Source: Quadrisphaera granulorum
GTDB taxonomy: Bacteria; Actinomycetota; Actinomycetes; Actinomycetales; Quadrisphaeraceae
Assembly (NCBI RefSeq): GCF_003149145.1
Contig: NZ_QGDQ01000002.1
Location: 1 to 64,000, forward strand
Direction of reading: 5' to 3'
Length of the DNA stretch: 64,000 nt
Part shown: in pieces, positions 1 through 22,834 of the stretch
Position numbering within the stretch: position 1 is the stretch's first letter
Layout of the letters: every line of letters begins with the position of its first letter
Translations under genes and position numbers: made by a program
The notes under the pieces: generated by a model
The model's database searches: none
Told to the model about the DNA's origin: nothing
What the model saw: the letters and a program-made list of their open reading frames with translations, nothing else

Positions 1-56
1 CCATCGTCGCCGCAGCGCTGGTGGTGCTGCACCTGGAGTACCACCGCACCGTGTGA
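1..56 (+). CDS. C-terminal end of an upstream gene (partial)
   Basis: The window opens inside a reading frame that ends at the TGA at 54-56. The 17 visible codons are rich in Val, Ala and Leu and end HLEYHRTV, which could be the end of a membrane segment followed by a short basic tail. Too little is visible to name a family. The frame is open to the window edge but could be chance. Confidence 0.3.
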   Translation, partial: IVAAALVVLHLEYHRTV

Positions 57-82
57 CGCAGCGTCACCACTCAAAGTCCTAG

Positions 83-439
83 TGGCAAAGGCTCAGTGAC
101 TCCGAAGTCGCTGTCGCTCACGTGAGTCTGCCTGACGAGGGTGACCGACATGTGCTCGCGGCCGCGGTCGCCGTCGACGCCGACGTGCTCTGCACCGACA
201 ACCTCAAGGACTTCCCGACCGACGTGATGGCGGAGTTCGGCATCCGACCCATGTCGGCGGACGCCCTGCTGGCCCACCTTGTCGCCGAGTTCCCGGTCGG
301 CATGCTCGCCGCACACCGACTTGCGGTGTCGCGACTCCCTGGCGCGACCGACGCCTCGACTCTTGCCGCACTCCGCCGTGTGGGGGCACCGAACACGGCT
401 GACCTCATGGCCGTGCTCCTCCGCGCCGATACGGGATGA
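83..439 (+). pseudogene. PIN-domain protein fragment, 5' truncated
   Basis: The frame is open from the stop at 80-82 to the TGA at 437-439. A GTG at 122 would give 105 aa. The sequence PDEGDRHVLAAAV followed by CTDNLKDFP is the C-terminal half of a PIN ribonuclease domain, with the conserved Asp pair and the N-x-x-D-F end. The N-terminal strand carrying the first catalytic Asp is absent upstream, so an active nuclease is unlikely. PIN proteins are typically VapC-like toxins, but no antitoxin gene precedes it. The start is not real in the ordinary sense. It looks like a decayed toxin gene at the edge of an accessory patch. Confidence 0.6.
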
Positions 440-558
440 ACCGCCACCGCTGGCTGCTCCTTCTGGAGCAGGTCGCCGAGCTGGAGCGGAGCCGGTTCGA
501 GGGTGGCCGCGCCTTCATCGGCCCTAGGCCGACGTGGGTCGCGTCCCGCGAGGCCTAG
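436..558 (+). CDS. Small ORF of 40 aa overlapping the PIN fragment
   Basis: An ATG at 436 overlaps the TGA of the PIN fragment (ATGA) and opens a 40-codon frame beginning MNRHRWLLLLEQVAELERSR. The coupling-type overlap is the only support. There is no domain I recognise. It may be a remnant of the gene that followed the intact PIN gene. Confidence 0.25.
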   Translation: MNRHRWLLLLEQVAELERSRFEGGRAFIGPRPTWVASREA

Positions 559-569
559 GTTGCTGCGCC

Positions 570-1667
570 GTGCTGCGTGACCCCGTCGACGTCGTCGTCG
601 ACGATGTCTCTTCCCGCCACCGGGAGGTCTGCAGAGACTGCCTGTGGGAACTGCTCGACGGGCGGCGGGTGCACCTGCACGCCGACAACCCGCGCCGCTG
701 GCGTGCCGGTGATGTGAGGGCCGTCCTGGAGCTGACCGCCACCCGGCTTGTCGACTACTGCGACCTGCCGGCGCACGCCGTCCCCGCGTTGCGCGCCTAC
801 CTGGACGACCTCTCAACGCGCGACACGCTGCACCCCGGCAGCGCTCGCCCTGCTGCCCTGCAGAAGGAACTCGACAGAGAGGGGGAGACCTTCCCGGAGG
901 CCATCACCGACAGGTCTCGCTGGATGTTGGCCAAGACGATCTACGCCGCCATGCGCGAGGACGGCGTCGACCTGCGCGATCCCCAGGCCACCGACCGGTG
1001 GGCCGCACGGTTCACCCAGCTCTCACCCGCCCAACGGGAACCGATCCTCGGTCACCTCGCCACGGAGCAGCCTGGGCTGCTGGTCGGTGAGCTGTTCGCC
1101 GCCGATGGCATCGCGGTCTTCGTCGAACCGCTCCCCCACGGCGAGCGGACGGCGACCAGCACCGAAGTGCTGGACGATATGCTGGACAGACCTGGCCCCG
1201 AGCTGGGCGTCGCCGCCGCCATGGCCGCTCTCAGCGGCGCCAACCGGCTCGCGGCGATCCTCGTGGCCCGAGACTCCGAACTGCTGGCTCACCTGCTCAC
1301 GGTGAGCCACTGGCTCATCGGCAGGACGACGACGACGCGCGGCGGCCTGGTTCCCGCGGACATCACCGCGCTCGTCCACATCACGGGCGAGACGACGGCA
1401 GCGCAGCGCCCGCGATCTCCCGAGGAAGCCCCTCACTCCTCGCGTCTGGTGCGCATCGCCGAGGAGGTGGGGCTGGTGGTGGCCGGCACACCGCGATGGG
1501 CGCCGGGGCCTCGGCTGATCTCCGACCCGGAGGACGTCGACGGCGACGTCCTGCTCGACCTGTGGGTGGCCGTACTCGACGTGCTGTCACGCGAGACATG
1601 GGCACGTCCAGCGGCCACAGCCTCCGAGAACTCCGCGCTGAACGCCGGGTCCGCCCTCAACTGGTGA
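570..1667 (+). CDS. Conserved-looking hypothetical protein (365 aa)
   Basis: I do not recognise this family. The start at GTG 570 (MLRDPVDVVV) is preferred over GTG 534 because the longer form overlaps the small upstream ORF and adds a Gly/Cys-rich stretch. The protein is acidic, Leu/Ala-rich and apparently soluble, with no membrane segment or signal peptide. The last 90 residues (EEVGLVVAGTPRWAPG, then a helical end) resemble a winged-helix layout, but I cannot assign it. It faces the AAA+ gene at 1702-2838 tail to tail with a 34-bp gap, and both sit beside a broken PIN gene. This suggests acquired accessory DNA. Confidence 0.55.
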   Translation: MLRDPVDVVVDDVSSRHREVCRDCLWELLDGRRVHLHADNPRRWRAGDVRAVLELTATRLVDYCDLPAHAVPALRAYLDDLSTRDTLHPGSARPAALQKELDREGETFPEAITDRSRWMLAKTIYAAMREDGVDLRDPQATDRWAARFTQLSPAQREPILGHLATEQPGLLVGELFAADGIAVFVEPLPHGERTATSTEVLDDMLDRPGPELGVAAAMAALSGANRLAAILVARDSELLAHLLTVSHWLIGRTTTTRGGLVPADITALVHITGETTAAQRPRSPEEAPHSSRLVRIAEEVGLVVAGTPRWAPGPRLISDPEDVDGDVLLDLWVAVLDVLSRETWARPAATASENSALNAGSALNW

Positions 1668-1701
1668 GCCCGCAGCCGCGGGCGATTCCCCGCCGGCTTC
1701 G

Positions 1702-2838
1702 TCAGAGCGGTCCGAGCGCCTCGGTCGCGGCGTGCTCACGCAGGTAGTCGCGGACATAGGGCAGCGTGAAGTCGACCTTGCCATGGCCGACCGGCTCGAT
1801 CAGCTCTGCGGCGATCAGCCTGAGCCGGTACTGGCTGGCGTACGTGGCGTCGACACCGAGACGTTGAGCGATCACACCCATCGCTGAAGGGCCGTCGTCG
1901 ACAGCCATGGCAGCGAGGAACGACTTGTCGACCGCTGACAGCGATGAGAGGGCGGGCTCATGCACAAGGTGGCCGACGCGTCGCACCGACCGCTCGATTC
2001 CCTCACGGACATGCTCCGCGGTCACTTCGGTGCTGCCTGGGTCGGCTCTCCACGAGTGGAAACCCACGAGCTGGACAAGGAAGGGGTAACGCTGCGTGCC
2101 CTCGACGGCCAGCGATAAGGCGTCATCGCCAATGGCCCGGCCCGACGACTCGATGGGCTCGCGCAGGGCGCGAGCGACGTCAGACGCCGGCACCTTGCCC
2201 AGGGTGAACCGCTCAGCACGACGTAGGAACGTCAGCACGTCGTCGTTGAGCAGGTCCGTGACAGCGGAGGGCAGCCCCGCAGCGACCAATGCGACCTCGC
2301 GGCCTTCTCGAAAGGCGTGCTGGACCGTGTGCGCGAGCTCGCGAAGGTCAGTGATGGCCGACCGGTGGACCTCATCGAGCGAGATGAGCACTCCGCTGCC
2401 GCGCGGGGCGATGGCCTCGGTGAGCTCATCCAGCCTGGACCGGAGCGACGCCGCGACAGGGTGGCGGTCCTCGTGGTGTCGGGTGACGCCACCGCCAACT
2501 CCGAAGACCGAGGCGCTTGCCTGGGTGAGACGGCGCCGCACAGCCTCGTCAGTGTGCTGCGCGAGGAGGGCGGTGAGGTGCGTGTCGGCGATGCGCTGGG
2601 CCACTCCCGGGCGCACCGTCTCCGAAACGACGAGCCAGCCCCGGTTCCGGGCGAGATCCTCCACGGCGTTGAGCAGAGCAGTCTTGCCGCATCCTCGGAC
2701 GCCCGTGAAGAGCGTCGCTCGCGCTGGCGAACCGGGGCCGCCGTCAAGAGACTCAGCAACGGCTTCCAGCTCAGCATCGCGCCCCACGAGGAGCGGCGGG
2801 GAGACCCCGAAGGACGGGGTGAAGGGATTGGAAGCCAC
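1702..2838 (-). CDS. AAA+ ATPase of the Orc1/Cdc6-like (AAA_16) type
   Basis: The 378-aa protein has a Walker A motif GVRGCGKT at residues 46-53 and a Walker B motif LISLDEVH near 150-157, then a helical lid and a C-terminal winged-helix region (about 310-375) with SAMGVIAQRLGVD as the likely recognition segment. This layout is typical of the actinobacterial ATP-binding proteins that carry an ORC-like AAA domain and a winged helix. Their cellular role is mostly unknown. The GTG start at 2838 has GGAGGG 3 nt upstream. The promoter region is a distinctive AT-rich palindrome (2843-2888). No partner gene is adjacent in the same direction. Confidence 0.75.
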   Translation of the reverse strand: MASNPFTPSFGVSPPLLVGRDAELEAVAESLDGGPGSPARATLFTGVRGCGKTALLNAVEDLARNRGWLVVSETVRPGVAQRIADTHLTALLAQHTDEAVRRRLTQASASVFGVGGGVTRHHEDRHPVAASLRSRLDELTEAIAPRGSGVLISLDEVHRSAITDLRELAHTVQHAFREGREVALVAAGLPSAVTDLLNDDVLTFLRRAERFTLGKVPASDVARALREPIESSGRAIGDDALSLAVEGTQRYPFLVQLVGFHSWRADPGSTEVTAEHVREGIERSVRRVGHLVHEPALSSLSAVDKSFLAAMAVDDGPSAMGVIAQRLGVDATYASQYRLRLIAAELIEPVGHGKVDFTLPYVRDYLREHAATEALGPL

Positions 2839-2842
2839 GAGC

Positions 2843-2888
2843 CCTCCAGCTTTAGACCCTTTTAGATCTTTTAGATATTAGCTGGAGG
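2843..2888 (-). promoter_or_regulatory. AT-rich palindromic promoter/operator of the AAA+ gene
   Basis: A perfect 9-bp inverted repeat (CCTCCAGCT at 2843-2851, AGCTGGAGG at 2880-2888) flanks three copies of TTTAGA at 2851, 2861 and 2870, so they are spaced about one helical turn apart. On the minus strand this reads TAATATC, a good -10. The inner arm contains the ribosome binding site. The design fits an autoregulated promoter and stands out sharply in the GC-rich background. Confidence 0.5.
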
Positions 2889-2897
2889 AGGTTGGTG

Positions 2898-2939
2898 GCA
2901 GCGGTGGTCTCGGTGGGGAAGTCACGAGACCACCGCTGC
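2898..2939 (-). terminator. Terminator hairpin after fliA
   Basis: A perfect 15-bp stem (2898-2912 with 2925-2939) and a 12-nt loop lie 13 bp past the fliA stop. There is no T tract, as is usual in actinobacteria. It also separates fliA from the divergent-facing promoter of the AAA+ gene. Confidence 0.7.
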
Positions 2940-2952
2940 TGCTTGGGGGACC

Positions 2953-3882
2953 TCAGGCCAGCGCGGCCCAGGTGCCGGGCTCGGCCGGTGCGGCCGGAGC
3001 GGGGATTGCCGGCACGGGGCCGCGCACAACGGCTTCGGCCGTCTCGGGCAGGGCTGCGACCGGCATGACAGCCGCATGGGCAGCAACGGCCGCAAAGTAG
3101 GCCTGGCGGCGGCGGTCCACCACTCCCCCGGGCCGCTCGGCTGGCGTCACCAGCGATGGCTCGAGAGCGGAGTTCATGCCGTCGCGCATGAGCTGCAGCG
3201 CCTCGGTGCGCAGCTGGCTGATCCGCGACTCGGTGACGCTGAGCTCAGCGGCCACCTCGGCCACCGACCGGTCCTCGAGGAACAGGGCCTGCACCACGGT
3301 GCGCAGCCGCATGGGCAGCGACTCGATGGCCGCATGCAGGTAACGAACCTGCTCGTTCTGCAGCAGGTGCTCCTCAGGTCCGGGACCCTCGTGGGGCAGC
3401 ACCTCGGCAACGACGCCGTCGTAGGCGTCCATGCTCACGAGCGCCCGCTCGGTGGTGGCGCGGGCGGCGTCCAGCTCTTCCGGCGAGCACCCCAGGGCCG
3501 CCGCCAGCTCTGCGCGCTCGGGCTTGCGCCCGAGCTGGCCGGCCAGCGTCTCCTCCGCGACGGCGAGCTGCCGCGTGCGGGTGCGGGCACCACGAGGAGC
3601 CCAGTCCATAGAGCGGAGCTCGTCGAGTAGCGCCCCGCGGATACGCAACGTGGCGTAGCGGCTGAAGGGCACGCCCGTCTCGGCGTCGTAGCTCATCGCG
3701 GCCTGCGCCAGCGCCGCCATGCCGGCGGAGACAAGGTCGTCACGCAGCACGTGCCCGGGAAGTCGAGCCATGGTCTCGCTGACCTGATACCCGACGATGG
3801 GCAGGTGGGCGCGGACAAGCTCGTCCACCTCACGGCCCGACCGGCGCGGCCGGCTGGCTGGGGTGCTCGCTGAGTTGCTCAC
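2953..3882 (-). CDS. fliA: RNA polymerase sigma factor FliA (sigma-28/WhiG family)
   Basis: The 309-aa protein has sigma region 2 (about 20-95, with VPFSRYATLRIRGALLDELR), region 3 (about 105-160) and region 4 (about 185-236, helix-turn-helix SVAEVAAELSVTESRISQL). This order and the RGALLDELR motif are diagnostic of the FliA/WhiG group. It should direct transcription of late flagellar and chemotaxis genes, and FliA-type promoters lie upstream of four operons in this window. It is divergent from the flgN operon. Residues 237-309 form an Ala/Pro-rich C-terminal extension absent from enterobacterial FliA. No flgM anti-sigma gene is visible nearby. Confidence 0.9.
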   Translation of the reverse strand: MSNSASTPASRPRRSGREVDELVRAHLPIVGYQVSETMARLPGHVLRDDLVSAGMAALAQAAMSYDAETGVPFSRYATLRIRGALLDELRSMDWAPRGARTRTRQLAVAEETLAGQLGRKPERAELAAALGCSPEELDAARATTERALVSMDAYDGVVAEVLPHEGPGPEEHLLQNEQVRYLHAAIESLPMRLRTVVQALFLEDRSVAEVAAELSVTESRISQLRTEALQLMRDGMNSALEPSLVTPAERPGGVVDRRRQAYFAAVAAHAAVMPVAALPETAEAVVRGPVPAIPAPAAPAEPGTWAALA

Positions 3883-4019
3883 GGAGAGTGTTTCGGCCGC
3901 CCGGGTGACTTCCTTGAGCCACTCGGGTCACACGCGCCTCCGTAGCCTCGGGAACGAGCAGTGAGAGCCGAGAGAACGGTGTGGTCCGCCCCGTGACGAG
4001 GTGAGCGGACCGCAGAACC

Positions 4020-4047
4020 CTCAGGGACGGGGGGTCACCGCCGATGG
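4020..4047 (+). promoter_or_regulatory. FliA-type promoter of the flgN-flgK-flgL-fliW operon
   Basis: CTCA at 4020-4023, a 16-bp spacer and GCCGATGG at 4040-4047 match the sigma-28/WhiG promoter form known from actinobacteria. The motif ends 36 bp before the flgN start. Confidence 0.7.
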
Positions 4048-4083
4048 ACTGGCGAGGAAGACCCGACCGAAAGTTCCAAGGGG

Positions 4084-4569
4084 GTGTTCGTGGGCGTCGC
4101 CGAAGTGTCCAACGTGCTGTGGCGCGAGCGAGAGCAGCTGGACCTACTGCTGTTCAAGCTCGAGGAGGAGCAGCTGGTGCTCAACAGCGGACGCACCCGC
4201 TGGGTGGCTCACGCCACCCGTGAGGTGGAGATCGTGCTGGAGCAGGTGCGCCAGAGCGAGCTCCTGCGCGCCGTCGAGGTGGACGCCTACGCCGAGTCTG
4301 TCGGCCTGGGCCCCAACCCGAGCCTCAAGGACCTAGCAACCGCCGCTGGGGAGCCGTGGAGCGAGCTGCTGCTCGCCCACCGCGATGCCCTGGTCGAGGT
4401 GACGGATGAGATCCGGCGCCTGTCCGAGAGCAATCGGATCATCCTCTCCGCCGCTGCGCGGGCCACCCACGAGACGCTCCTGAGCATCAACGGGACACTC
4501 GAAACCTACGCCCCGACGGGACGGACGACCTCTGCCGCCCCCGCCAACCTCGTCGACCGATCCCTGTAG
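4084..4569 (+). CDS. flgN: Flagellar export chaperone FlgN family protein
   Basis: This 161-aa, all-helical acidic protein is the first gene of the operon flgN-flgK-flgL-fliW. FlgN proteins bind the hook-filament junction proteins FlgK and FlgL in the cytoplasm and deliver them to the flagellar type III export gate. The sequence REREQLDLLLFKLEEEQLVL and the later SESNRIILSAAARATHETLL match the FlgN helix pattern. The GTG at 4084 is taken as the start, and a GTG at 4090 is possible. It ends 12 bp before flgK. Assignment rests on both the sequence pattern and the position. Confidence 0.8.
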   Translation: MFVGVAEVSNVLWREREQLDLLLFKLEEEQLVLNSGRTRWVAHATREVEIVLEQVRQSELLRAVEVDAYAESVGLGPNPSLKDLATAAGEPWSELLLAHRDALVEVTDEIRRLSESNRIILSAAARATHETLLSINGTLETYAPTGRTTSAAPANLVDRSL

Positions 4570-4581
4570 AGGACCCCACCC

Positions 4582-5985
4582 ATGAGCTCCTTCTCCGGCC
4601 TGTCGACGGCGCTGTCCGCGCTGCAGGCGACCCGCAAGGCCCTCGACGTCACGGGCAACAACATCGCCAACGTGGCGACGCCGGGCTACACCCGTCAGCG
4701 GGTGGACCTCCAGCCGGCCACCACGGCCGTCGGTCTCATGACCACCGGGCAGCAGGGTGGCAATGGCGTCATGCTGACCGGCGTCAGCCGGCTGGCCAGC
4801 GCCTTCTGGGACGCCCAGGTGCGCTCCCAGACGTCCCTGCACGCTGACCTGGCCTCCCGCGCTGACACCCTCAATACCCTTCAGGACCTCACCGGCGAGC
4901 CCAGCGACACGGCCCTGGCCGGCAGCTTGTCGAAGATGTGGTCAGCGTTCGCCAACCTGGCTAGCAACGCGACCGGCACCAACAAGGACGCCGCGCGCTC
5001 CGTGGTGGTCTCTTCCGCCGAGAACGTCGCCAACTCCCTCAAGAACGGCTACGCCGGCATCGTGGCGATGTGGAACGACCAGCGCACACAGGCCACCTCC
5101 ATCGCCAACGAGGTGAACGCCACCGCCCAGGCCGTCGCCACCTTCAACCAGCAGATCAAGACGGCGGTCGCCGCCGGCAACAGCGCCAACGAGCTGATGG
5201 ACCAGCGCGACCAGCTCGTGGTCCGCCTCGCCGAGCTGACCGGCGCGACCACCGTTCAGGCGCCGAACGGCGTGGTGGACGTCTACCTGGGGTCCAACGC
5301 TCTGGTTCAGGGCGGCTCCTCCTACACCGTCGCGATGAGCGCCCCGACCACCACCAACACGCTGCCGCCGACCGGCTCGCCGTCGCTGAAGTTCACCGAC
5401 GGCTCCGTGGCCTCGGTCCGCGGCGGCCAGCTGGCCGGCGTGCTCGACGCCCTGCGGGTGGGCGGCACGCTGGACACGGCGGCCGCCCAGTACGACACCG
5501 TCGCCAACACGGTCAAGTCTGTGGTCAACACCGCCTACGCCGCGACGCAGGTCGCCGCTGACGGCGCCACGGTGCCCGTCTTCTTTTCCACCAGCGGCAC
5601 CGGCGCGACCGGCCTGTCCGTCGCGGTGACGACGTCGACCCTGCGGACCGGCAATACCGACACCAAGGGCGCCGGAGACGCGTCGGTCGCGCTAGCCATG
5701 AGCACGCTCGGCAAGGCCACGGGAAGCCCCGACAGCCTCTGGACGACCTACGTCTCCCAGCTCGGAGCCGACGCCGCCGGCGCCACCTCCCGTACCACGG
5801 CGACGGCCGCGACGCTAGCCAACTCGGTCTCGTCCAAGCAGTCCGAGACCGGCGTCTCCCTCGATGAGGAGACCGCCAACCTGCTCACACTCCAGCGCGC
5901 CTACCAGGCCGCTGCCCGAGTGCTCACGTCCGTGGACGAGGCACTCGACACCCTCATCAACAAGACCGGTCTGGTCGGGAGGTAA
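4582..5985 (+). CDS. flgK: Flagellar hook-associated protein FlgK (HAP1)
   Basis: FlgK forms the first hook-filament junction ring after export. The N terminus SALQATRKALDVTGNNIAN is the flagellar rod/hook signature, and the C terminus NLLTLQRAYQAAARVLTSVD is the matching heptad region that coils with it. Length 467 aa is near the usual range. The middle is a Thr/Ala-rich variable domain. The ATG at 4582 follows GAGGA by 8 nt. It is co-transcribed with flgN and flgL, with only 5 bp between flgK and flgL. Confidence 0.95.
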   Translation: MSSFSGLSTALSALQATRKALDVTGNNIANVATPGYTRQRVDLQPATTAVGLMTTGQQGGNGVMLTGVSRLASAFWDAQVRSQTSLHADLASRADTLNTLQDLTGEPSDTALAGSLSKMWSAFANLASNATGTNKDAARSVVVSSAENVANSLKNGYAGIVAMWNDQRTQATSIANEVNATAQAVATFNQQIKTAVAAGNSANELMDQRDQLVVRLAELTGATTVQAPNGVVDVYLGSNALVQGGSSYTVAMSAPTTTNTLPPTGSPSLKFTDGSVASVRGGQLAGVLDALRVGGTLDTAAAQYDTVANTVKSVVNTAYAATQVAADGATVPVFFSTSGTGATGLSVAVTTSTLRTGNTDTKGAGDASVALAMSTLGKATGSPDSLWTTYVSQLGADAAGATSRTTATAATLANSVSSKQSETGVSLDEETANLLTLQRAYQAAARVLTSVDEALDTLINKTGLVGR

Positions 5986-5990
5986 CGGAC

Positions 5991-6905
5991 ATGAGCGGAC
6001 TTAGCCGCGTCACCCACCGCACGATCCAGGAGCAGTCGCTCGCGAACCTGCAGAGCAACCTGTCGGCGATGGCCACACTCAGCGAGCAGCTGTCGACGGG
6101 CAAGCGCATCAACAGGCCGTCGGACGACCCGACCGGCACCGTCGACGCGCTGCGCCTGCGCACGCTGCAGCGCGACAACGAGCAGTACGGCAAGAACGCG
6201 AACGACGGGCTCGCCTGGCTCGGCGCCACCGACAGGGCGCTGCAGTCCACGCTGTCCCAGCTCAACGTCGCGACCAACCGTGCGATGCAGGCCCTCAACA
6301 GCGGCACCCAGAACACGACGTCGCGGGCTGCGCTCGCGGCGGAGGTCGACGGTGTGCTGTCCGCGGTCAAGGGGATGGCCAACAGCACCTACTCCGACCG
6401 TAACCTCTTCGCCGGAACCGCCACCGGTGACGCGGTCACGGCCACGGGCACGGCTCCGACTCAGACGTTCACCTGGGGAACGATCGGTCTCGGCACGGTC
6501 ATGCGCCAGATCGGTCCGAACGACAGCGTGCGCGTGGACACCGACGGCAGGGACGTCTTCGGAGACGGAGCGACGTCCGTCTTCAAGACTCTGGAGGGCT
6601 TGGCCGCCGCCATCCGCTCCGGTGACGACGCCACCACCCGCACGCTGTACAGCCAGCTGCAGGACCGGCAGTCCACCGTCACCACGGCCCTGACCGAGGT
6701 CGGTGCTCGCTACAACCGGGTCACCGCTGCGCAGAACGCCGTGGCCGACCGCGACGTGGAGCTCACCAAGCAGCTCTCCGACGTGCAGGACCTCGACTTC
6801 CCGAAGGCTGTCATCGCCATGCAGTCGCAGAAGACCGCGTACGACGCGGCGCTGCAGGTCACGGCGAAGACGCTGCAGACGAGCCTGATGGACTTCATTC
6901 GATGA
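5991..6905 (+). CDS. flgL: Flagellar hook-associated protein FlgL (HAP3)
   Basis: FlgL is the second junction protein, placed between FlgK and flagellin. The 304-aa protein has the flagellin-like N-terminal domain (ANLQSNLSAMATLSEQLSTG, then RINRPSDDPTGTVDALRLR) and the C-terminal helix (KAVIAMQSQKTAYDAALQV). The strong Shine-Dalgarno GGAGGTAA is 6 nt from the ATG. Its stop overlaps the fliW start (ATGA at 6902-6905). Confidence 0.95.
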   Translation: MSGLSRVTHRTIQEQSLANLQSNLSAMATLSEQLSTGKRINRPSDDPTGTVDALRLRTLQRDNEQYGKNANDGLAWLGATDRALQSTLSQLNVATNRAMQALNSGTQNTTSRAALAAEVDGVLSAVKGMANSTYSDRNLFAGTATGDAVTATGTAPTQTFTWGTIGLGTVMRQIGPNDSVRVDTDGRDVFGDGATSVFKTLEGLAAAIRSGDDATTRTLYSQLQDRQSTVTTALTEVGARYNRVTAAQNAVADRDVELTKQLSDVQDLDFPKAVIAMQSQKTAYDAALQVTAKTLQTSLMDFIR

Positions 6906-7390
6906 CGGTCACAACGGGGGGTACGGTCACGATGACGAGCATGAGCGTTCAGGAGACCACGGAGGACCAGGTGTCCGTGATCGAGAGCACCGACGACGCC
7001 GCCTCGGCGCCCGAGGTCCGCTTCTCAGCGCCCCTGCTGGGTCTGGAGCACCTCACCCGGTTCGCCCTGGAGCAGGTCGAGGCTGACAGCCCGCTCTTCT
7101 CCCTGCGCAGCCTCGAGGACAACGACGTGAGCCTGCTCCTGCTCGCGCCGGACGCCGTCTTCGACGGGTACGCCCCGAAGATGGACGCCGTCTCCCGCGC
7201 CGCCGTGGGCCTGCCCACCGGTGACGACGGCATCATCCTCAACGTGGTCAACGCCGCCGGGGCGAAGTCCCTGGAGGAGGCCACGGTGAACCTGCTCGCG
7301 CCGATCCTCATCAACCCCAACAGCGGCACGGCGGCCCAGATCGTGCTGACCGGCAGCGACTACCCGCTGCGCCAGCCGCTGGCCGGCTGA
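6902..7390 (+). CDS. fliW: Flagellar assembly factor FliW
   Basis: FliW binds flagellin and, in species studied, antagonises the translational repressor CsrA. The conserved core starts near residue 40 (VRFSAPLLGLEHLTRFAL) and includes SLRSLEDNDVSLLLLAP, NVVNAAGAKSLEEATVNLLAPILIN and a terminal YPLRQPL, all typical of FliW. The N-terminal 38 residues are a Thr/Ser-rich extension, and internal ATGs at 6932 and 6941 could be the real start. A csrA gene often follows fliW, but here only 30 bp separate it from the convergent coiled-coil gene. Confidence 0.9.
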   Translation: MTVTTGGTVTMTSMSVQETTEDQVSVIESTDDAASAPEVRFSAPLLGLEHLTRFALEQVEADSPLFSLRSLEDNDVSLLLLAPDAVFDGYAPKMDAVSRAAVGLPTGDDGIILNVVNAAGAKSLEEATVNLLAPILINPNSGTAAQIVLTGSDYPLRQPLAG

Positions 7391-7420: not shown

Positions 7421-10400
7421 TCAGCCCGCGGCGAGGGACGACGCCGAACCCGACAGGTCCGACAACTCGCTGAGAATGCGCAGGTGCCGGGCCCGGATGG
7501 CCTCGACGTCGGCGGCGGCGCGCGCCAGCGCGGCCTTCGCTTCTTCACGCATCCGCTCTGCCTCAGCGGCGGCCTCCTCACGCAGCGAGGCGGCCGCCGC
7601 TGAGGCGTCGGCGAGCAGCTCGTCGCGCTCGGCGCGGGCAGCGGCGCGGTCACTCTCGGCCTCGGTGCGCAGCTGCTGGGCTGCGGCCTGCTCAGCAGCA
7701 GCGCGCTCGCTCGAGGCGGCAGCCTCTGAGAGCGCCTCGTGCAGGATGCGCTCCGCCTCCGCGCGGGCGGCGGAGAGGGCGTGTGCGGCAGCCTCGACCT
7801 GCTCCTCGGCCTGGGCCCGGAGCTCCTCGGCCTCCTCCTCAGCGGCCTCACGGACCGCGAGGGCGTGCGCCTTCGAGTCCGCGCGCAGACGCGCGGCCTC
7901 GTCCAGGAGCTCGCACGCCCGCTGCTCGGCGCTGACCAGGACGGCGTCAGCCTCCTCGCGGGACTCGCTGCGCAGCGTGGCTGCCTCGTCGAGGATCTCA
8001 TCGGCGCGTTCCTGCGCAGCAGCCAGCGCATCGGCCGCCTCCTGCGAAGCGCGCGCCAGCTCCGCCTCACCCTCAGCACGAAGACCCGCCGCCTCAGACT
8101 CCGCAGCAGCACGCACCGCCGCAGCATCCTCATCAGCAGCCCCACGCACCGCCACGGCCTCCTGCGAGGCACGAACCAGCTCCGCCTCACCCTCAGCACG
8201 AAGAACCGCCGCCTCAGACTCCGCAGCAGCACGCACGCCGGCGGCATCCTGCGAGGCACGAACCAGCTCCGCCTCACCCTCAGCACGAAGAACCGCCGCC
8301 TCAGACTCCGCAGCAGCACGCACCGCCGCAGCGTCGTCATCAGCAGCCCCACGCACCGCCACGGCCTCCTGCGAGGCACGAACCAGCTCCGCCTCACCCT
8401 CAGCACGAAGACCCGCCGCCTCAGACTCCGCAGCAGCACGCACCGCCGCAGCGTCGTCCTCCGCCGCGGCCAGCAGCTGGGCGACGCGTGCATTGGCGCG
8501 CTCGCGCAGCGCGTGGAGGCGCTCCCGCACCTCTCGCGCGTGCTCGGCGGCGTCGGCGTGGCTGCGCTGGTCAGCGTCGGCGAGCATCGCTGCGACCTGC
8601 TCGGCGGCCTGCACGCGCTGCAGATCAGCCTCGGCGGTGAGGGCCTCGGCCCGCTCCAGGGTGTCCGCGAGCTGCTTCTCCGCCTCGGCCACCACACGTG
8701 CAGCGTCCTGCGCGGCAGCGGTCATGACCCGCGAGGCATCCTCGTGCGCGTCCCGCATGACCTGCTCGGCATCGCCGTGGGTACGGACGAGTACGGCGGC
8801 AGCCTCGGCCTCCGCGTGCTGCAGGGCAGCGTGCGCGCGCTCCTTGAGCCGGGCGACCTCGGCGCGCAGCTCCCCCGCCTGCGACATCGCCTTGGCGACG
8901 ACCTCTTCGGCCTCGGCCTCGGCGCGCTGACGCACCTGCTCGGCCTCCGCCTCGGTACGCCCGAGCTCCACGCGAGCCTGCGCGAGCTCCGCGCGGGCCT
9001 GCTCGGCCTCTTCCTCGGCCTGCTCACGGATCGCAGCTGCCTCGCGCACCATGCGCTGCACCTGCTGCTGAGCCTGAACGCGAGCGCCCTCGACGAGCGC
9101 CTCGGCCGCGGCAGCGGCCCCCGCCTCGACCGCCTCACGGGCCCCCTCGGCGTCCTTGAGGAGCGCAGCCCCGCGCTCACGGGCGCGAGCAAGCATCTTG
9201 TCGGCATCGAGGTGTGCTGCGGCACGGATCTCCGCGGCGGCAGCAGCGGCAGAGGCAGCGATCTTGTCCGCTTCCACGTGCGCATCGGCCATAACCTGGT
9301 CGGCCAACTGCACGGTGTCTGCGTTGAGCCCGTCGGCGTCATCGGCAGCGATGCGCCAGAGACGGTCGGCTTCCTCGCGAGCCTCAGCCACCAGCTGGAC
9401 GGCACGCTCGCGGTCTCGATCAGCCTCCGCCTGGAGCAGGTTCGCCGCGGCGCGCGCCGCCTGCAGCACCTCCTCGGCGTCACGCTGGACGTCGTCGCGC
9501 AGCGCCTGGACGTGGTTGCGTGACGTGGTGGCGTGCTCGCGCGCGCCGGCAAGCAGGTGATCGGCTTCGGCGCGGACCTCGACGGCGGTGGCGCGCGCCC
9601 GTGCGACCGCGGCCGTGGCCTCCTCGCGGAGCGTCGAAGCCTCGACACGAGCCGTGGCTAGCAGCTGCTCCGCCTCGCCACGCGCGACGAGACCCTGCCG
9701 GCGAGCGGCCTCGGTCTGCTCCTCGGCAGTGGAGCGCGACGCCGCCAGCAGCTCCTCTGCCTGGTCCCGCGCCGACTCGAGTAGCTTCTTCGCCCCGACG
9801 CGAGCCGCTTCCAGCAGGGCCTCGGACTCCGCGCGGCTGGAGGCGAGCACCTGCTCGGCCTCGGCCCGCACGGCCAGCCCTTGCAGACGGGCTGCCTCGG
9901 ACTGCTCCTGCGCACTCGAACGCGTCGACTCCAGCAGCGCGTCGGACTCCGCACGCGCACGCTCGAGCAGCGCCTCGGCCTCGACGCGACTCGAGGCGAG
10001 CACCTGCTCGGCCTCAGCCCGAACAGCCGCACTCTCCTGACGCGAAACCTCCGACTGCTCCTGCGCACTCGACCGCGTCGACTCCAGCAGCGCCTCAGCC
10101 TCCAGGCGCGCCGACTCCAGCAGCGCCTCAGCCTCCACACGACTCGCCGCCAACACCTGCTCGGCCTCAGCCCGAACAGCCGCACTCTCCTGACGCGAAA
10201 CCTCCGACTGCTCCTGCGCACTCGACCGCGTCGACTCCAGCAGCGCCTCAGCCTCCAGGCGCGCCGACTCCAGCAGCGCCTCAGCCTCCACACGACTCGC
10301 CGCCAACACCTGCTCGGCCTCAGCCCGAACAGCCGCACTCTCCTGACGCGAAACCTCCGACTGCTCCTGCGCACTCGACCGCGTCGACTCCAGCAGCGCC

Positions 10401-12073
10401 TCAGCCTCCAGGCGCGCCGACTCCAGCAGCGCCTCAGCCTCCACACGACTCGCCGCCAACACCTGCTCGGCCTCAGCCCGAACAGCCGCACTCTCCTGAC
10501 GCGCAGCCTCGACCTGCCCCTCAGCCGTTGACCGCGTAGTGGCCAGCAGCTGCTCGGACTCGGCGCGGGCGCGCTCCAGCAGCACCTCCGCCTCGCTGCG
10601 GGCAGCGAAGAGCAGACGCTCGAGGTCTTCTTGGGCCCGCTCGCGGTCGGCGTCCAGCGACTGCAGCACCGCAGCGCGCTCGGCGTCGAGCTCCTCACGG
10701 ACCCGGGCCTTCTCCTGCGCCGAGGCGGTGGCCGCCTCCACGCGGATGGCTTCAGCCTCGACGGCGGCGTCGGTGCGGAGGACCTCGGCCTCCGCACGCA
10801 GCAGCTCGGCCTCCGCGCGCAGCTGCTCTGCCAGCGAGGTGGCCTCGGCGCGCAGCCGGTGAGCGTCCTCCTCGGCGTCGGCCAGCAGCTGGCGCGAGTC
10901 CTGACGGGCCTGAGCCATGGCGCGGTCAGCGGCGTCAGCCGCCTCCGCGGCACGTGCCACGGCCTGGGCGCGGAGACGCTCCGCCTCCGCGAGGGCCTGG
11001 TCGCGCTGCTCCTCGGCCCGGACGACGAGCCTGATCGACTCGGTGCGCACCGCGTCGCGGTCAAGCTCGGCCCGCTCGCGTCGGCGCTGGACATCCCGCA
11101 GGTCGCCGACGACGTCGTCCGTGAGGCGTGACGCCCGCTGAGATGCCTCGTTGATGACGACGTCGGCGATCGACCGCAGCACGCTGATGCGGTCCTGCAG
11201 CGCCAGCGCCTGCGCGCTGACGCGCTGACGGCGGTCACGCAGGGCGCCGAGGTCGGTGCGCAGCAGCGTCACCTGCTCGCGCAGCTCGGCGTGCTGGGAG
11301 TGGACGGCGTTGAGCGCGCTAAAGCTCTCAGCGACGCGGGCCTCCGCCGCCTCCAGCACCTGGGCCGCCTCCTCGGCGGCACGGGCGCGCTCGGCAGCGC
11401 TGGCCTCGGCGCCGGCGTGGACGTCAGCCTCGGCCTCTTCGAGGATCTCCTCCGCGCGGGCTTCCGCCGCCCGCAGCACCTCGGCGGCCTCCTCGGCAGC
11501 ACGAGCACGCTCGGCATCGGCCTCCTCGGCAGCACGAGCACGCTCGGCTGCGGCCTCCTCGGCAGCACGGGCACGCAGCTCGGCGGCCTCCTCGGCAGCA
11601 CGAGCGCGCTCCTCTGCACTCGCCCCGGCGCGGGCCTCGGCATCCCCGACCACCTCGGCAGCGCGGGCCTCGGCGGCGCGGACCACGTCGGCGGCCTCCG
11701 CCGCGGCACGGGCGCGCGCCTCGGCGGCCTCCTCGGCAGCGCGGGCCAGCACGGTGCGGGCTTCTGCCTCGGCCTGGGCCCTGACCTGGTCGGCCCGCCC
11801 CTGAGCGAGGTCGAGCAGCATCGCCGCGTGCTCGTAGCTGGTGGGGGTCGCGACCGGTTCAGGCTGGCGGACGCCGTCGCGAAGGTCGATGACGGGCTGG
11901 CGGCGCTGTCGCGGAACGGCCGGCATGGAGCCTGTGCACTCGGGGCAGGCCCCGCATCCACCGCATCCGTCGGTATCAGCCAGGAAGTCGACGTCGTCGA
12001 GTCCGCTGCCGTAGCCGTCCCGCGTGTTCCACGGGGACAGCGGGGCGTGACGCCCGGTGCGGTCGCTGTCCAT
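7421..12073 (-). CDS. Giant Scy/FilP-like coiled-coil protein
   Basis: The protein is about 1550 aa. The ATG at 12073 (MDSDRTGRHAPL) is chosen over an in-frame start at 12322 because the extra 83 residues are low-quality Arg-rich sequence running into a terminator. After a 55-residue head with two CxxC pairs (CGGC and CPEC), nearly the whole chain is Ala/Glu/Arg coiled coil. Residues in the 10.0-10.5 kb part repeat with an exact period of 51 aa, and the 8.0-8.5 kb part with periods of 40 and 29 aa. There is no membrane segment. Streptomyces Scy and FilP, polar cytoskeletal scaffolds, are known for 51-residue coiled-coil repeats. A polar scaffold role is therefore likely but inferred. It is convergent with fliW and lies downstream of the che operon terminator. 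Confidence 0.8.
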   Translation of the reverse strand: MDSDRTGRHAPLSPWNTRDGYGSGLDDVDFLADTDGCGGCGACPECTGSMPAVPRQRRQPVIDLRDGVRQPEPVATPTSYEHAAMLLDLAQGRADQVRAQAEAEARTVLARAAEEAAEARARAAAEAADVVRAAEARAAEVVGDAEARAGASAEERARAAEEAAELRARAAEEAAAERARAAEEADAERARAAEEAAEVLRAAEARAEEILEEAEADVHAGAEASAAERARAAEEAAQVLEAAEARVAESFSALNAVHSQHAELREQVTLLRTDLGALRDRRQRVSAQALALQDRISVLRSIADVVINEASQRASRLTDDVVGDLRDVQRRRERAELDRDAVRTESIRLVVRAEEQRDQALAEAERLRAQAVARAAEAADAADRAMAQARQDSRQLLADAEEDAHRLRAEATSLAEQLRAEAELLRAEAEVLRTDAAVEAEAIRVEAATASAQEKARVREELDAERAAVLQSLDADRERAQEDLERLLFAARSEAEVLLERARAESEQLLATTRSTAEGQVEAARQESAAVRAEAEQVLAASRVEAEALLESARLEAEALLESTRSSAQEQSEVSRQESAAVRAEAEQVLAASRVEAEALLESARLEAEALLESTRSSAQEQSEVSRQESAAVRAEAEQVLAASRVEAEALLESARLEAEALLESTRSSAQEQSEVSRQESAAVRAEAEQVLASSRVEAEALLERARAESDALLESTRSSAQEQSEAARLQGLAVRAEAEQVLASSRAESEALLEAARVGAKKLLESARDQAEELLAASRSTAEEQTEAARRQGLVARGEAEQLLATARVEASTLREEATAAVARARATAVEVRAEADHLLAGAREHATTSRNHVQALRDDVQRDAEEVLQAARAAANLLQAEADRDRERAVQLVAEAREEADRLWRIAADDADGLNADTVQLADQVMADAHVEADKIAASAAAAAAEIRAAAHLDADKMLARARERGAALLKDAEGAREAVEAGAAAAAEALVEGARVQAQQQVQRMVREAAAIREQAEEEAEQARAELAQARVELGRTEAEAEQVRQRAEAEAEEVVAKAMSQAGELRAEVARLKERAHAALQHAEAEAAAVLVRTHGDAEQVMRDAHEDASRVMTAAAQDAARVVAEAEKQLADTLERAEALTAEADLQRVQAAEQVAAMLADADQRSHADAAEHAREVRERLHALRERANARVAQLLAAAEDDAAAVRAAAESEAAGLRAEGEAELVRASQEAVAVRGAADDDAAAVRAAAESEAAVLRAEGEAELVRASQDAAGVRAAAESEAAVLRAEGEAELVRASQEAVAVRGAADEDAAAVRAAAESEAAGLRAEGEAELARASQEAADALAAAQERADEILDEAATLRSESREEADAVLVSAEQRACELLDEAARLRADSKAHALAVREAAEEEAEELRAQAEEQVEAAAHALSAARAEAERILHEALSEAAASSERAAAEQAAAQQLRTEAESDRAAARAERDELLADASAAAASLREEAAAEAERMREEAKAALARAAADVEAIRARHLRILSELSDLSGSASSLAAG
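8041..8460. repeat. Tandem repeats (120 bp and 87 bp units) in the coiled-coil gene
   Basis: Near-identical DNA units encode VRAAAESEAA..LRAEGEAEL blocks. Two long units of 120 bp flank one 87-bp unit, and only a few bases differ between copies. Such identity implies recent unequal exchange. Confidence 0.8.
10000..10503. repeat. Exact 153-bp tandem repeats in the coiled-coil gene
   Basis: About 3.3 copies of a 153-bp unit are essentially identical; the marker CGCGAAA recurs at 10041, 10194 and 10347. Each unit encodes one 51-residue coiled-coil repeat. Flanking units on both sides keep the protein pattern but have diverged in DNA. Confidence 0.9.
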
Positions 12074-12168
12074 GCACGGATCGTGACACTGGGAGAGCGC
12101 GGAGTGTGGGACTTCCGTCGTCGTCGGCCTGTCACCGATCTTCGATGCCCTTGTCGAAGGCACGAGAA

Positions 12169-12200
12169 GAGGGGGCCGGGCCCGTAGGCCCGACCCCCTC
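12169..12200 (-). terminator. Terminator after the che operon
   Basis: A 14-bp stem with one mismatch (12169-12182 with 12187-12200) and a CGTA tetraloop lie about 50 bp past the stop of the receiver-CheX gene. It divides the che operon from the coiled-coil gene read in the same direction. Confidence 0.7.
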
Positions 12201-12251
12201 CCCCGCTCGTCCTGGACCCGCCCGGCCCGGTGTTCGACCTGCGACGGGACC

Positions 12252-13130
12252 TCAGACGAGGACGATCGACAGCGTTCCCGTGCCGTAGCCCTTGACCGAC
12301 ACGGCCCAGTCCACGCGACCACCGAGAGCGGTCAGGTGGCCGATGACGTCGGTGGGGATCTGCTCGCCGAGCGCGTGGTGGGAGTACAGCTTCAGGTGCG
12401 CGGCGTCACCGACGTTGAACAGCGCCGCCATGACGTTGAGCACCTCGGCTGCGTTGGTGCGCAGGTTGGGGAACAGCTCCTTGTCGTCGACGGCGTCCGC
12501 CGCGGCGCCCGGGGGCAGCAGACCGATGGCCGCGCCGATGTACGCCGCCATCGGCAGGTCGAACGCGACCACGGCGCGCAGCTTGGTGGTCGAGTCGACG
12601 TAGGTGCCGACGACGCCGACGTTGCCCGAGGGACGGTTGCCGTCGGCGAAGGTGCACTCCTTGTTGAGGAGGCCCTCGAGCATGTCGCGCGCGTCCTTCG
12701 CCACCGGCAGCTGCGTGGCGCCGGTGCCGGTGGTGGTGACGTGCTCCAGCTCGGCGCTGGCGCTGCCGCCACCGAGCACCGGCCCGAGGGCCGCCTCGAA
12801 CGTGTCGGCGGAGAACGGCTTGGCGATGAGGAACAGCGCGCCCGCGGCGGCCGCGGCGGAGCGCATCTCTTCGCTGCCCTCGGAGGTCACGAAGCCGAAC
12901 GGCACGTCGGCGCCCGACGCGCGCAGCGCGCGCAGGCACTCGATGCCGGTCATCTCGGGCATGTTCCAGTCGGACAGCAGGAGGTCGGGAGCCTCGGAGC
13001 TGACCTTCTCGAAGGCGTCGCGGCCGTTCTCCGCCTCGATGACCTCGTGGTCGTCGAAGCCGGCCTGACGCAGGGTGCGGATCACGATCTGCCGCATGAC
13101 GCGGCTGTCGTCAGCGATCAGGATCTTCAC
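12252..13130 (-). CDS. Response regulator fused to a CheX-like phosphatase domain
   Basis: Residues 1-120 are a CheY-like receiver with the acidic pair ADDS at 6-9, phospho-acceptor Asp54 (LLSDWNMPEMTG) and the conserved Lys in LIAKPF. Residues about 150-292 are a CheX/CheC-like domain, including the ExxN motif in AAEVLNVMAALFN that positions the water for CheY-P hydrolysis. A protein carrying both the phosphorylatable receiver and a phosphatase-type domain could either destroy its own phosphoryl group or have its phosphatase gated by phosphorylation. It is the last gene of cheB-cheR-cheY-cheX-rec/cheX, and 69 bp separate it from cheX. Confidence 0.8.
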   Translation of the reverse strand: MKILIADDSRVMRQIVIRTLRQAGFDDHEVIEAENGRDAFEKVSSEAPDLLLSDWNMPEMTGIECLRALRASGADVPFGFVTSEGSEEMRSAAAAAGALFLIAKPFSADTFEAALGPVLGGGSASAELEHVTTTGTGATQLPVAKDARDMLEGLLNKECTFADGNRPSGNVGVVGTYVDSTTKLRAVVAFDLPMAAYIGAAIGLLPPGAAADAVDDKELFPNLRTNAAEVLNVMAALFNVGDAAHLKLYSHHALGEQIPTDVIGHLTALGGRVDWAVSVKGYGTGTLSIVLV

Positions 13131-16239: not shown

Positions 16240-16268
16240 GGATCGGCGGAAGACCCCGGGGAGTTGAG
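16240..16268 (-). promoter_or_regulatory. FliA-type promoter of the cheB operon
   Basis: On the minus strand CTCA (16265-16268), a 17-bp spacer and GCCGATCC (16240-16247) form a sigma-28-type promoter 48 bp before cheB. Confidence 0.7.
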
Positions 16269-22805: not shown

Positions 22806-22834
22806 TCATCGGCTGCCAGTGGGTCGGACCTGAG
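22806..22834 (-). promoter_or_regulatory. FliA-type promoter of the MCP-cheA-cheW operon
   Basis: CTCA (22831-22834), a 17-bp spacer and GCCGATGA (22806-22813) on the minus strand lie 50 bp before the MCP start. Confidence 0.7.

What the first reader, a model, noticed from the sequence alone, without database searches (positions are those of the whole stretch)
7421..12073. Giant 51-residue-repeat coiled-coil protein between flagellar and chemotaxis operons
The sequence shows a protein of about 1550 aa, almost entirely coiled coil, with exact 51-aa repeats. Streptomyces Scy and FilP, which organise the growing pole, are built on 51-residue repeats. This organism is flagellated, and the gene sits head-on against flgN-flgK-flgL-fliW and directly after the che operon. 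A polar scaffold for flagella or chemoreceptor arrays in a motile actinobacterium would be new. The link to polarity is inference.
Basis: partly seen in the sequence, partly recalled or inferred. Interest (0 to 1): 0.8.

Follow-up and report, generated by a model that had tools for sequence, protein, structure and literature searches.

The report
Giant coiled-coil rod beside motility genes
A real 1,550-residue rod-shaped protein gene sits between flagellar and chemotaxis genes; it is an extra, recently stretched copy of a rod protein found only in this genus in our sample, built like bacterial skeleton proteins but not shown to belong to the known Scy family, and no link to motility or cell poles has been shown.

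Summary
The gene is real: minus strand 12073→7421, 1550 aa, a disordered leader (1–78), then proline-free hendecad/heptad coil (3.64 residues/turn, as in Scy and FilP). The exact 51-aa repeats are a recent 153-bp tandem duplication, absent from six other complete relatives.

Scy/FilP membership fails: no RGYD DivIVA-like head, NCBIfam Scy 36.8 bits against a 1040 cut-off, comparison with Scy barely above reversed decoys (35.4 against 34.0), no FilP C-terminal match. A separate FilP-like gene lies on another contig, beside a coiled-coil protein that does share the giant's N-terminal box.

The giant is one of two paralogues. A copy at a non-flagellar locus occurs in all 6 sampled genomes of the genus; the flagellar-locus copy occurs in 2 of 6, between fliW and the che genes, where six relatives have only 0.4–0.7 kb. 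It has its family's own upstream element, follows a terminator-like hairpin, and lacks the FliA-like site seen before some flagellar/che genes.

Best reading: a lineage-specific, headless, intermediate-filament-like rod duplicate. A motility role is possible but unproven.

The parts
7421..12073 (-). Giant coiled-coil gene, 1550 aa
   Evidence: orthologue P0002 in G001; codon-position pattern
11840..12073 (-). Residues 1-78: predicted disordered, all prolines; conserved start (RTGR.APLSPW..DGYGSGLDD shared with G001) and VIDLRD
11936..11965 (-). Residues 37-46: four-cysteine cluster CxxCxxCxxC, only in this copy among the members aligned
11744..11836 (-). Residues 80-110: N-terminal box (YEHAAMLLDLAQGRADQVRAQAEAEA...), conserved in the family and in the FilP-adjacent protein
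11096..11284 (-). Residues 264-326: conserved non-repetitive coil segment (LREQVTLLRTDLGALRDRR...DRISVLRSIAD)
9899..10510 (-). Residues 522-725: four 51-aa (153-bp) tandem copies, two of them identical in DNA
8032..8458 (-). Second tandem array, 207/120/87-bp (69/40/29-aa) units
7439..7516 (-). Residues 1520-1545: conserved C-terminal cap (AADVEAIRARHLRILSELSDLSGSAS)
12074..12089 (-). 16-bp upstream element GTGTCACGATCCGTGC directly before the ATG, invariant in the six members aligned
12163..12204 (-). Terminator-like hairpin between the cheY-cheX gene and the giant; G001 has it with a two-sided pair change (read from the alignment)

Best explanation
It is a lineage-specific paralogue of a giant coiled-coil rod protein family that is confined to this genus in the sample. 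It most likely works as an intermediate-filament-like cytoskeletal element. Two chains would pair in register into a nearly straight rod about 0.2 µm long (1463 residues × 0.1485 nm, a recalled rise per residue, gives about 217 nm). The rods would bundle through their repetitive charged faces. The disordered N-terminal leader plus box and the conserved C-terminal cap would act as docking ends. Unlike Scy and FilP it has no DivIVA-like head, so it cannot use that route to the pole and probably depends on self-assembly or on partners such as the genome's separate FilP-like protein. Its place between flagellar and che genes is a derived or transferred insertion with its own upstream element. Rod length seems to evolve by duplications that keep the helix in phase. 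Shown: gene, repeats, copy distribution in the sample, absence of the head, shared helical period, conserved upstream element. Inferred: dimerisation, bundling, partners, any location in the cell.
For: Family and copies: giants of 1901, 1816 and 1809 aa at a non-flagellar locus in G003, G004 and G002, the two ends of one on separate contigs in G005, and shorter ones (700 and 982 aa) in G000 and G001, which also have the flagellar-locus copy (1550 and 1315 aa) (some starts were set by me at the conserved M next to the upstream element). A profile of the N-terminal region over 396 genomes of the order gives strong hits (best 238-330 bits) in the 6 genomes of this genus only; 8 others give 19-30 bits; at most 7 candidates per genome were scored, so absence is soft. 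Empty site in 6 relatives. Upstream element identical in 6 of 6 aligned members. The FilP-like RGYD gene and its coiled-coil neighbour are elsewhere; that neighbour matches the giants' N-terminal profile at its own box in the 4 genomes scored (23.4-33.9 bits), against at most 18.3 for reversed decoys; a fifth candidate (G013) was not picked up and not scored. Helical period 3.638-3.654 in the seven giants, 3.642 in Scy. All seven near-exact repeat lags are multiples of 3 and near whole helical turns. A FilP piece without head and first coil (aa 71-310) still makes striated filaments, with a weaker major band (PMC6599971, passages seen).
Against: No function, localisation or expression data. 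The giants' profile does not reach Scy itself (10.1 bits, below the 18.3 of reversed Scy) nor the FilP-like protein (4.9, equal to its reverse), so descent from the known IF-like proteins is not shown. A rod could equally be a spacer, a nucleoid-associated protein or something else. The flagellar-locus copy shares a divergent FlgL and CheX half with G001 only, which could mean it was selected together with motility genes.
Confidence: 0.6

Rival explanations
1. A motility-dedicated scaffold: the rod positions flagella or the chemoreceptor array, and was recruited together with a distinct flgL/cheX-half allele block.
For: Both genomes that carry the flagellar copy share FlgL 77-80% and a CheY-CheX protein 92-93% identical, while this genome's FlgL is 37-49% and its CheX half 55-57% identical to the four congeners without it. 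The location between fliW and the che genes is shared by both.
Against: Own upstream element shared with the non-flagellar paralogues, a terminator-like hairpin after the che genes, no CTCA-N14-17-GCCGA site before it although 4 of the 9 such sites in the window lie just before fliA, flgN, cheB and an mcp, and 4 of 6 genomes of the genus have fliW and the CheY/CheX genes without it. No FlhF over the cut-off in 7 of 7 genomes.
Confidence: 0.17
2. A true Scy/FilP orthologue that acts in the polar growth complex.
For: NCBIfam Scy E 8.6e-10 over part of the rod; same helical period; FilP window comparison 35.7 against 26.9 for reversed windows and FilP whole-alignment comparison with probability 66.7%, aligned at the box; the N-terminal fragment hits RGYD (FilP-like) genes shortly after their RGYD domain in 3 other families, at E 3e-5 to 2.4e-4.
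Against: 36.8 bits against 1040; sub-cut-off matches occur in 70 of 197 genomes of the class and in the Thermotoga and Corynebacterium controls, over-cut-off matches in 15, all of one genus; the same model searched in six frames over this genome lists P0008 (23.2 bits), not the giant. No RGYD motif. Scy comparison: probability 11.5% for the whole alignment, at a place late in Scy's rod, not near its start; windows 35.4 against 34.0 reversed. The best FilP window was not the box but a later one; the box window came second. The FilP box profile finds no unique place, and the FilP C-terminal profile matches no giant, though it matches Scy at 10.3 bits. The FilP-like gene is on another contig.
Confidence: 0.05
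3. A neutral or decaying passenger: a duplicated gene stuck in a gap, expanding by repeat slippage without function in its new place.
For: Fast evolution (55% identity to G001 while the adjacent CheY-CheX is 92%), private exact repeats, restriction to 2 of 6 genomes.
Against: Intact frame in both genomes, third-position excess (204/169/380) and conserved N-terminus, box, mid segments and C-terminal cap.
Confidence: 0.13

Closest known systems
Scy (Streptomyces polarity coiled-coil protein; NCBIfam NF041483)
   Same: Over 1200 residues, hendecad-type coil with the same helical period (3.642 against 3.638); an 'xxLLxxAQxxADQxR' stretch near the start of the rod is visible by eye in both, without statistical support.
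   Different: Scy begins with the RGYD-type DivIVA-like coil (PMC9858780, Results section read) and its C-terminus matches the FilP C-terminal profile; the giant has neither, scores far below the family cut-off and is not next to filP.
FilP (IF-like protein) and the genome's own FilP-like protein P0009
   Same: Hendecad rod; weak profile similarity above reversed decoys.
   Different: FilP-type proteins seen here are mostly about 310-340 aa (some up to 591), with an RGYD DivIVA-like head; the giant is several times longer and headless.
FilP-adjacent coiled-coil protein P0008 (sits directly before the FilP-like gene, as the over-cut-off Scy gene does in L071)
   Same: Homologous N-terminal box and following coil (23-34 bits in the 4 genomes scored); no RGYD in its translation; same period.
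   Different: 661 aa in this genome against 1550; no near-exact tandem repeats.
PolyDIV proteins (PMC9858780)
   Same: Actinobacterial, built of repeated units.
   Different: They carry 2-8 DivIVA-like domains; the giant carries none.

Membership tests
Scy | Reaches the curated NCBIfam Scy cut-off (1040 bits) | tested here: not met
   36.8 bits, two stretches, the best at profile positions 445-792 of 1293; over cut-off in 15 of 197 genomes of the class, all one genus
Scy / FilP | N-terminal DivIVA-like domain with RGYDxxEVD motif (definition of PMC9858780) | tested here: not met
   No RGYD in P0001, visible in the translation; no Pfam DivIVA, whereas P0009 has RGYDPLQVD and a DivIVA match at 1.8e-5, 25.2 bits, just below Pfam's cut-off of 28
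Scy / FilP | Hendecad-type coil, 51 residues per 14 turns (PMC3718342, passages seen) | tested here: met
   Period 3.638 against 51/14 = 3.643; lag 11, 29, 40, 51 peaks; met for periodicity, but the exact 51-mers are a private duplication
Scy / FilP | Profile-profile similarity above composition-matched decoys | tested here: inconclusive
   Scy windows 35.4 against 34.0 reversed; FilP windows 35.7 against 26.9 reversed; whole alignments: probability 11.5% (Scy) and 66.7% (FilP); FilP box profile does not land uniquely on the N-terminal box
Scy / FilP | C-terminal cap of FilP/Scy | tested here: not met
   FilP C-terminal profile (8 distinct sequences): best 0.5 bits in the eight giant sequences searched, one of them (G005) without its C-terminus; 10.3 bits in Scy
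Scy | Gene adjacent to filP | tested here: not met
   FilP-like gene is on G000:C27, giant on C2
Scy / FilP | Polar localisation, interaction with DivIVA | not testable with these tools
   No experiment
FliA-controlled motility gene | FliA-like site (CTCA-N14-17-GCCGA, recalled consensus) upstream | tested here: not met
   None between 12074 and 12252; 4 of 9 sites in the window lie just before fliA, flgN, cheB, mcp; the total of 9 is not above chance (5.9 expected, 12 of 100 shuffles reach it)

The most novel reading that the evidence does not exclude
A headless, more than 200-nm IF-like rod has been recruited into a motility locus and moves between species with a distinct hook-junction (FlgL, probably FlgK) and CheX allele block, acting as a length-adjustable ruler or scaffold for flagella or chemoreceptor arrays; its length changes by duplications restricted to whole numbers of helical turns.
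Probability: 0.13. Interest if true: 0.75.

Novelty: new variant of a known kind. Interest (0 to 1): 0.42.

Why it matters
It suggests that some actinobacteria make Scy-scale hendecad rods that lack the DivIVA-like head shared by Scy and FilP. It gives a natural series (700 to 1901 aa) in which rod length varies strongly between close relatives. In two species one copy sits in the motility locus together with divergent flagellar alleles, so a simple deletion could tell whether such rods serve motility or general cell architecture.

Tried and rejected
Scy orthology was considered first because of the NCBIfam hit. It was rejected after the class-wide control and the reversed-decoy comparison.

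The idea that the N-terminal box is the FilP post-head box was tested with a FilP box profile. In the eight giant sequences the best place was the box only in P0007; in the other seven it lay elsewhere. So common descent with FilP is left open. The reverse test, giant N-terminal profile on the FilP-like protein, gave 4.9 bits, equal to its reverse.

Loss of csrA at the insertion was considered, since csrA often follows fliW (recalled). CsrA is on another contig here and lies about 37–52 kb from fliW in the eight relatives with both on one contig, so nothing of that kind was displaced.

The upstream element as a regulon signal: only the two paralogues match exactly in the genome, and 11 hits with up to 2 mismatches are not above the 10 of the control. 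No regulon claim is made.

FlhF: below cut-off in 7 of 7 genomes, so canonical polar flagellation is neither shown nor excluded.

Solved structures: none at E ≤ 0.001.

Literature: six searches. Among the papers they listed (8–15 each, out of 29 to 7,326 that held the terms) I saw none on this family or on a hendecad rod at a flagellar locus. Subscription journals are mostly missing from the library. The 2010 paper that described the 51-residue repeat was not read; its result is cited through passages of PMC3718342. PMC6224456 and PMC10746217 were only searched for terms and gave nothing used here.

Name of the organism: not established. G002's contig equals NZ_VDMJ01000004.1 'Streptomyces sp. 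NP160' in length (167075) and G005's contig equals MAG contig JAKONK010000242.1 in length (26740). The genus name stays open.

Full report
Observation. The window holds a 1550-aa ORF on the minus strand, 12073→7421. It has no Pfam family. It is rich in A, E and R, all nine prolines lie at or before residue 77, and a single-sequence AlphaFold model of residues 1–420 (mean pLDDT 77, pTM 0.37) shows a disordered stretch to 78 and then helix to 419 with short breaks at 148–152, 223–226 and 336–340. Amphipathic periodicity peaks at 3.635–3.638 residues per turn, close to 51/14 = 3.643. The frame is real: the G001 orthologue (1315 aa) differs from it mainly at third codon positions (204/169/380 in 849 codons of well-aligned blocks).

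Repeats. The exact 51-aa repeats lie at residues 522–725. Copies 573–623 and 624–674 are identical in DNA (153/153), and the flanking copies are 151/153 and 134/153. A second array has 69-, 40- and 29-aa units. A scan for near-exact repeats (at least 90% over 75 nt, lags 20–899) found seven lags in this gene and none in six other giants, in P0008 or in one Scy gene. The 51-mers are therefore a recent, private tandem duplication. Without residues 481–770 the lag-51 signal drops to z 2.1. The seven lags (87, 120, 153, 207, 306, 327, 459 bp) are not independent; all are multiples of 3 and within 0.06 of a whole number of helical turns. About 10–14% of possible lengths fall that close. Selection for register, or slippage between existing hendecads, would both give this. 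In assemblies from short reads (the method used here is not known) the copy number of exact repeats is uncertain.

The family. Relatives exist in all 6 sampled genomes of the genus. At a non-flagellar locus they measure 1816 (G004), 1809 (G002), 1901 (G003), 982 (G001) and 700 aa (G000); G005 has the two ends on separate contigs. That locus shares an upstream gene in G000, G001, G002, G003 and G004, and an M17 aminopeptidase plus FAD oxidoreductase downstream in G000, G001 and G004; in G003 and G002 these two were not found in the stretch fetched (G002's stretch ends with its contig). The six members aligned share parts of the N-terminal start, an IDLR-like stretch, a box (YxxAxxLLxLA), a non-repetitive coil segment and a C-terminal cap. 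A profile of the N-terminal region over 396 genomes of the order found 6 strong genomes, all of this genus, and 8 with weak matches (19–30 bits); at most 7 candidates per genome were scored, and G008, whose FilP-adjacent protein does match, gave no match there, so distant members can be missed.

The insertion. Only G000 and G001 carry a copy between fliW and the che genes. In six relatives where both genes are neighbours on one contig (G002, G003, G004, G005 of the genus; G008, G010 of other genera) fliW and the CheX-like gene lie about 0.4–0.7 kb apart. I read the ORFs of three of these gaps (G003, G004, G008) and saw no relative of the giant. In G006, G007, G009, G011 and G012 the two genes are not adjacent or lie on different contigs, so the site could not be judged. 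The giant follows a hairpin (−52.9 kcal/mol for 81 nt, z −4.4) that G001 also has, with a two-sided pair change (read). The 16 bp before the ATG are invariant in the six members aligned, from both loci, so the upstream element was copied with the gene. FliA-like sites (consensus recalled) lie just before fliA, flgN, cheB and an mcp (4 of 9 in the window) but not before the giant; the total of 9 is not above chance.

History. On 429 gapless columns the two flagellar-locus proteins form one group and the five others another (support 100; G005 left out as incomplete). Within the second, G000 and G001 do not group together, but with supports of 54–87 only. FilP-like and aminopeptidase-locus genes of G000 are about as similar to G001 as to G004 (81/81%, 75/71%, 87/86%), but most flagellar and che genes are closer to G001 (for example CheA 95/87%, CheX 85/63%, FlgL 80/40%; one CheY, 92/94%, goes the other way; best local pieces). 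On its shared C-terminal part FlgL is 69–94% identical among G002–G005, 77% between G000 and G001, and 44–49% across the two groups, about the level of another genus (42–44%). FlgK could be compared only with G001 (79%) and G005 (39%). The CheX half next to the insertion is 55–57% identical to congeners; of the other genera G008 gives 63% and G007 56%. FliW, which lies between, is 59–67% to congeners and 56% to G008 and so does not show the pattern clearly. This fits exchange of a motility block carrying the giant, or old alleles kept in two lineages. It is the main evidence for a link with motility, and it is only linkage.

Scy/FilP. The Results section of PMC9858780 defines the group by an RGYDxxEVD DivIVA-like domain and describes hendecads in Scy and FilP. 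The giant lacks the motif. The genome has a separate FilP-like protein with the motif (P0009), found in 9 of 13 genomes, directly after a coiled-coil protein (P0008), as the FilP gene follows the over-cut-off Scy gene in L071. The giants' N-terminal profile matches P0008 and its relatives at their N-terminal box (31.1, 25.3, 23.4 and 33.9 bits in G000, G002, G004 and G008) against at most 18.3 bits for reversed sequences (that one being reversed Scy), 10.1 for Scy and 4.9 for the FilP-like protein; a candidate in G013 was not picked up by the pattern and not scored. So the giants are related to the FilP-adjacent protein; descent from Scy itself is not shown. The Scy model scores 36.8 bits on the giant, in the range of the 70 genomes of the class with sub-cut-off matches (85 of 197 matched, 15 over cut-off; controls Thermotoga and Corynebacterium also match below it). 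Whole-alignment comparison gave probability 11.5% for Scy and 66.7% for FilP. By windows it gave 35.4 for Scy with reversed windows at 34.0, and 35.7 for FilP with reversed at 26.9, the best FilP window being a later one and the box window second. The FilP C-terminal profile matched Scy (10.3 bits) and no giant.

Mechanism. A FilP construct without head and first coil (aa 71–310) still forms striated filaments, with a weaker major band (PMC6599971, passages), so a headless rod of this kind can in principle bundle on its own. I infer an in-register dimer about 0.2 µm long that bundles, with the ends as docking sites. Location, partners and any role in motility are open.

Verdict. New variant of a known kind.

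Noticed in passing
4582-6905: FlgL of this genome and G001 is only about 37-49% identical to that of four congeners, which are 69-94% identical to each other; FlgK is 39% to the one congener compared (G005). CheA, CheB, CheW and the CheYs next door are 74-94% identical (CheX 63-66%, the 364-aa ORF 61-68%).
   Followed up: partly
12252-13130: CheY and a CheX-like half form one open frame here and in G001, while the matches in G002, G003, G004, G007, G008 and G010 contain a stop; the CheX-like half is unusually divergent from congeners.
   Followed up: partly
11936-11965: Four cysteines spaced CxxCxxCxxC in the disordered leader, absent from the leaders of the other five aligned members including G001; a metal site is conceivable.
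   Followed up: no
L002:1411-4420: FilP-like RGYD protein preceded by a coiled-coil protein without RGYD; a related neighbour occurs at the FilP locus in G002, G004 and G008, and perhaps in G013, suggesting that scy's place is taken by a headless protein in this family.
   Followed up: partly
11876-11893 and L002 (P0009 C-terminus): The short stretch VIDLRD occurs in the leader of the giant and at the C-terminal end of the FilP-like protein P0009; it may be a shared docking motif or chance.
   Followed up: no
4020-4044, 3893-3918, 16243-16268, 22809-22834: CTCA-N-GCCGA sites just upstream of flgN, fliA, cheB and an mcp, possible FliA promoters.
   Followed up: partly
7421-12073: Third-position GC of the giant is 0.82, lower than in the seven neighbouring genes measured (0.90-0.95) and than in the G001 copy (0.96).
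   Followed up: no
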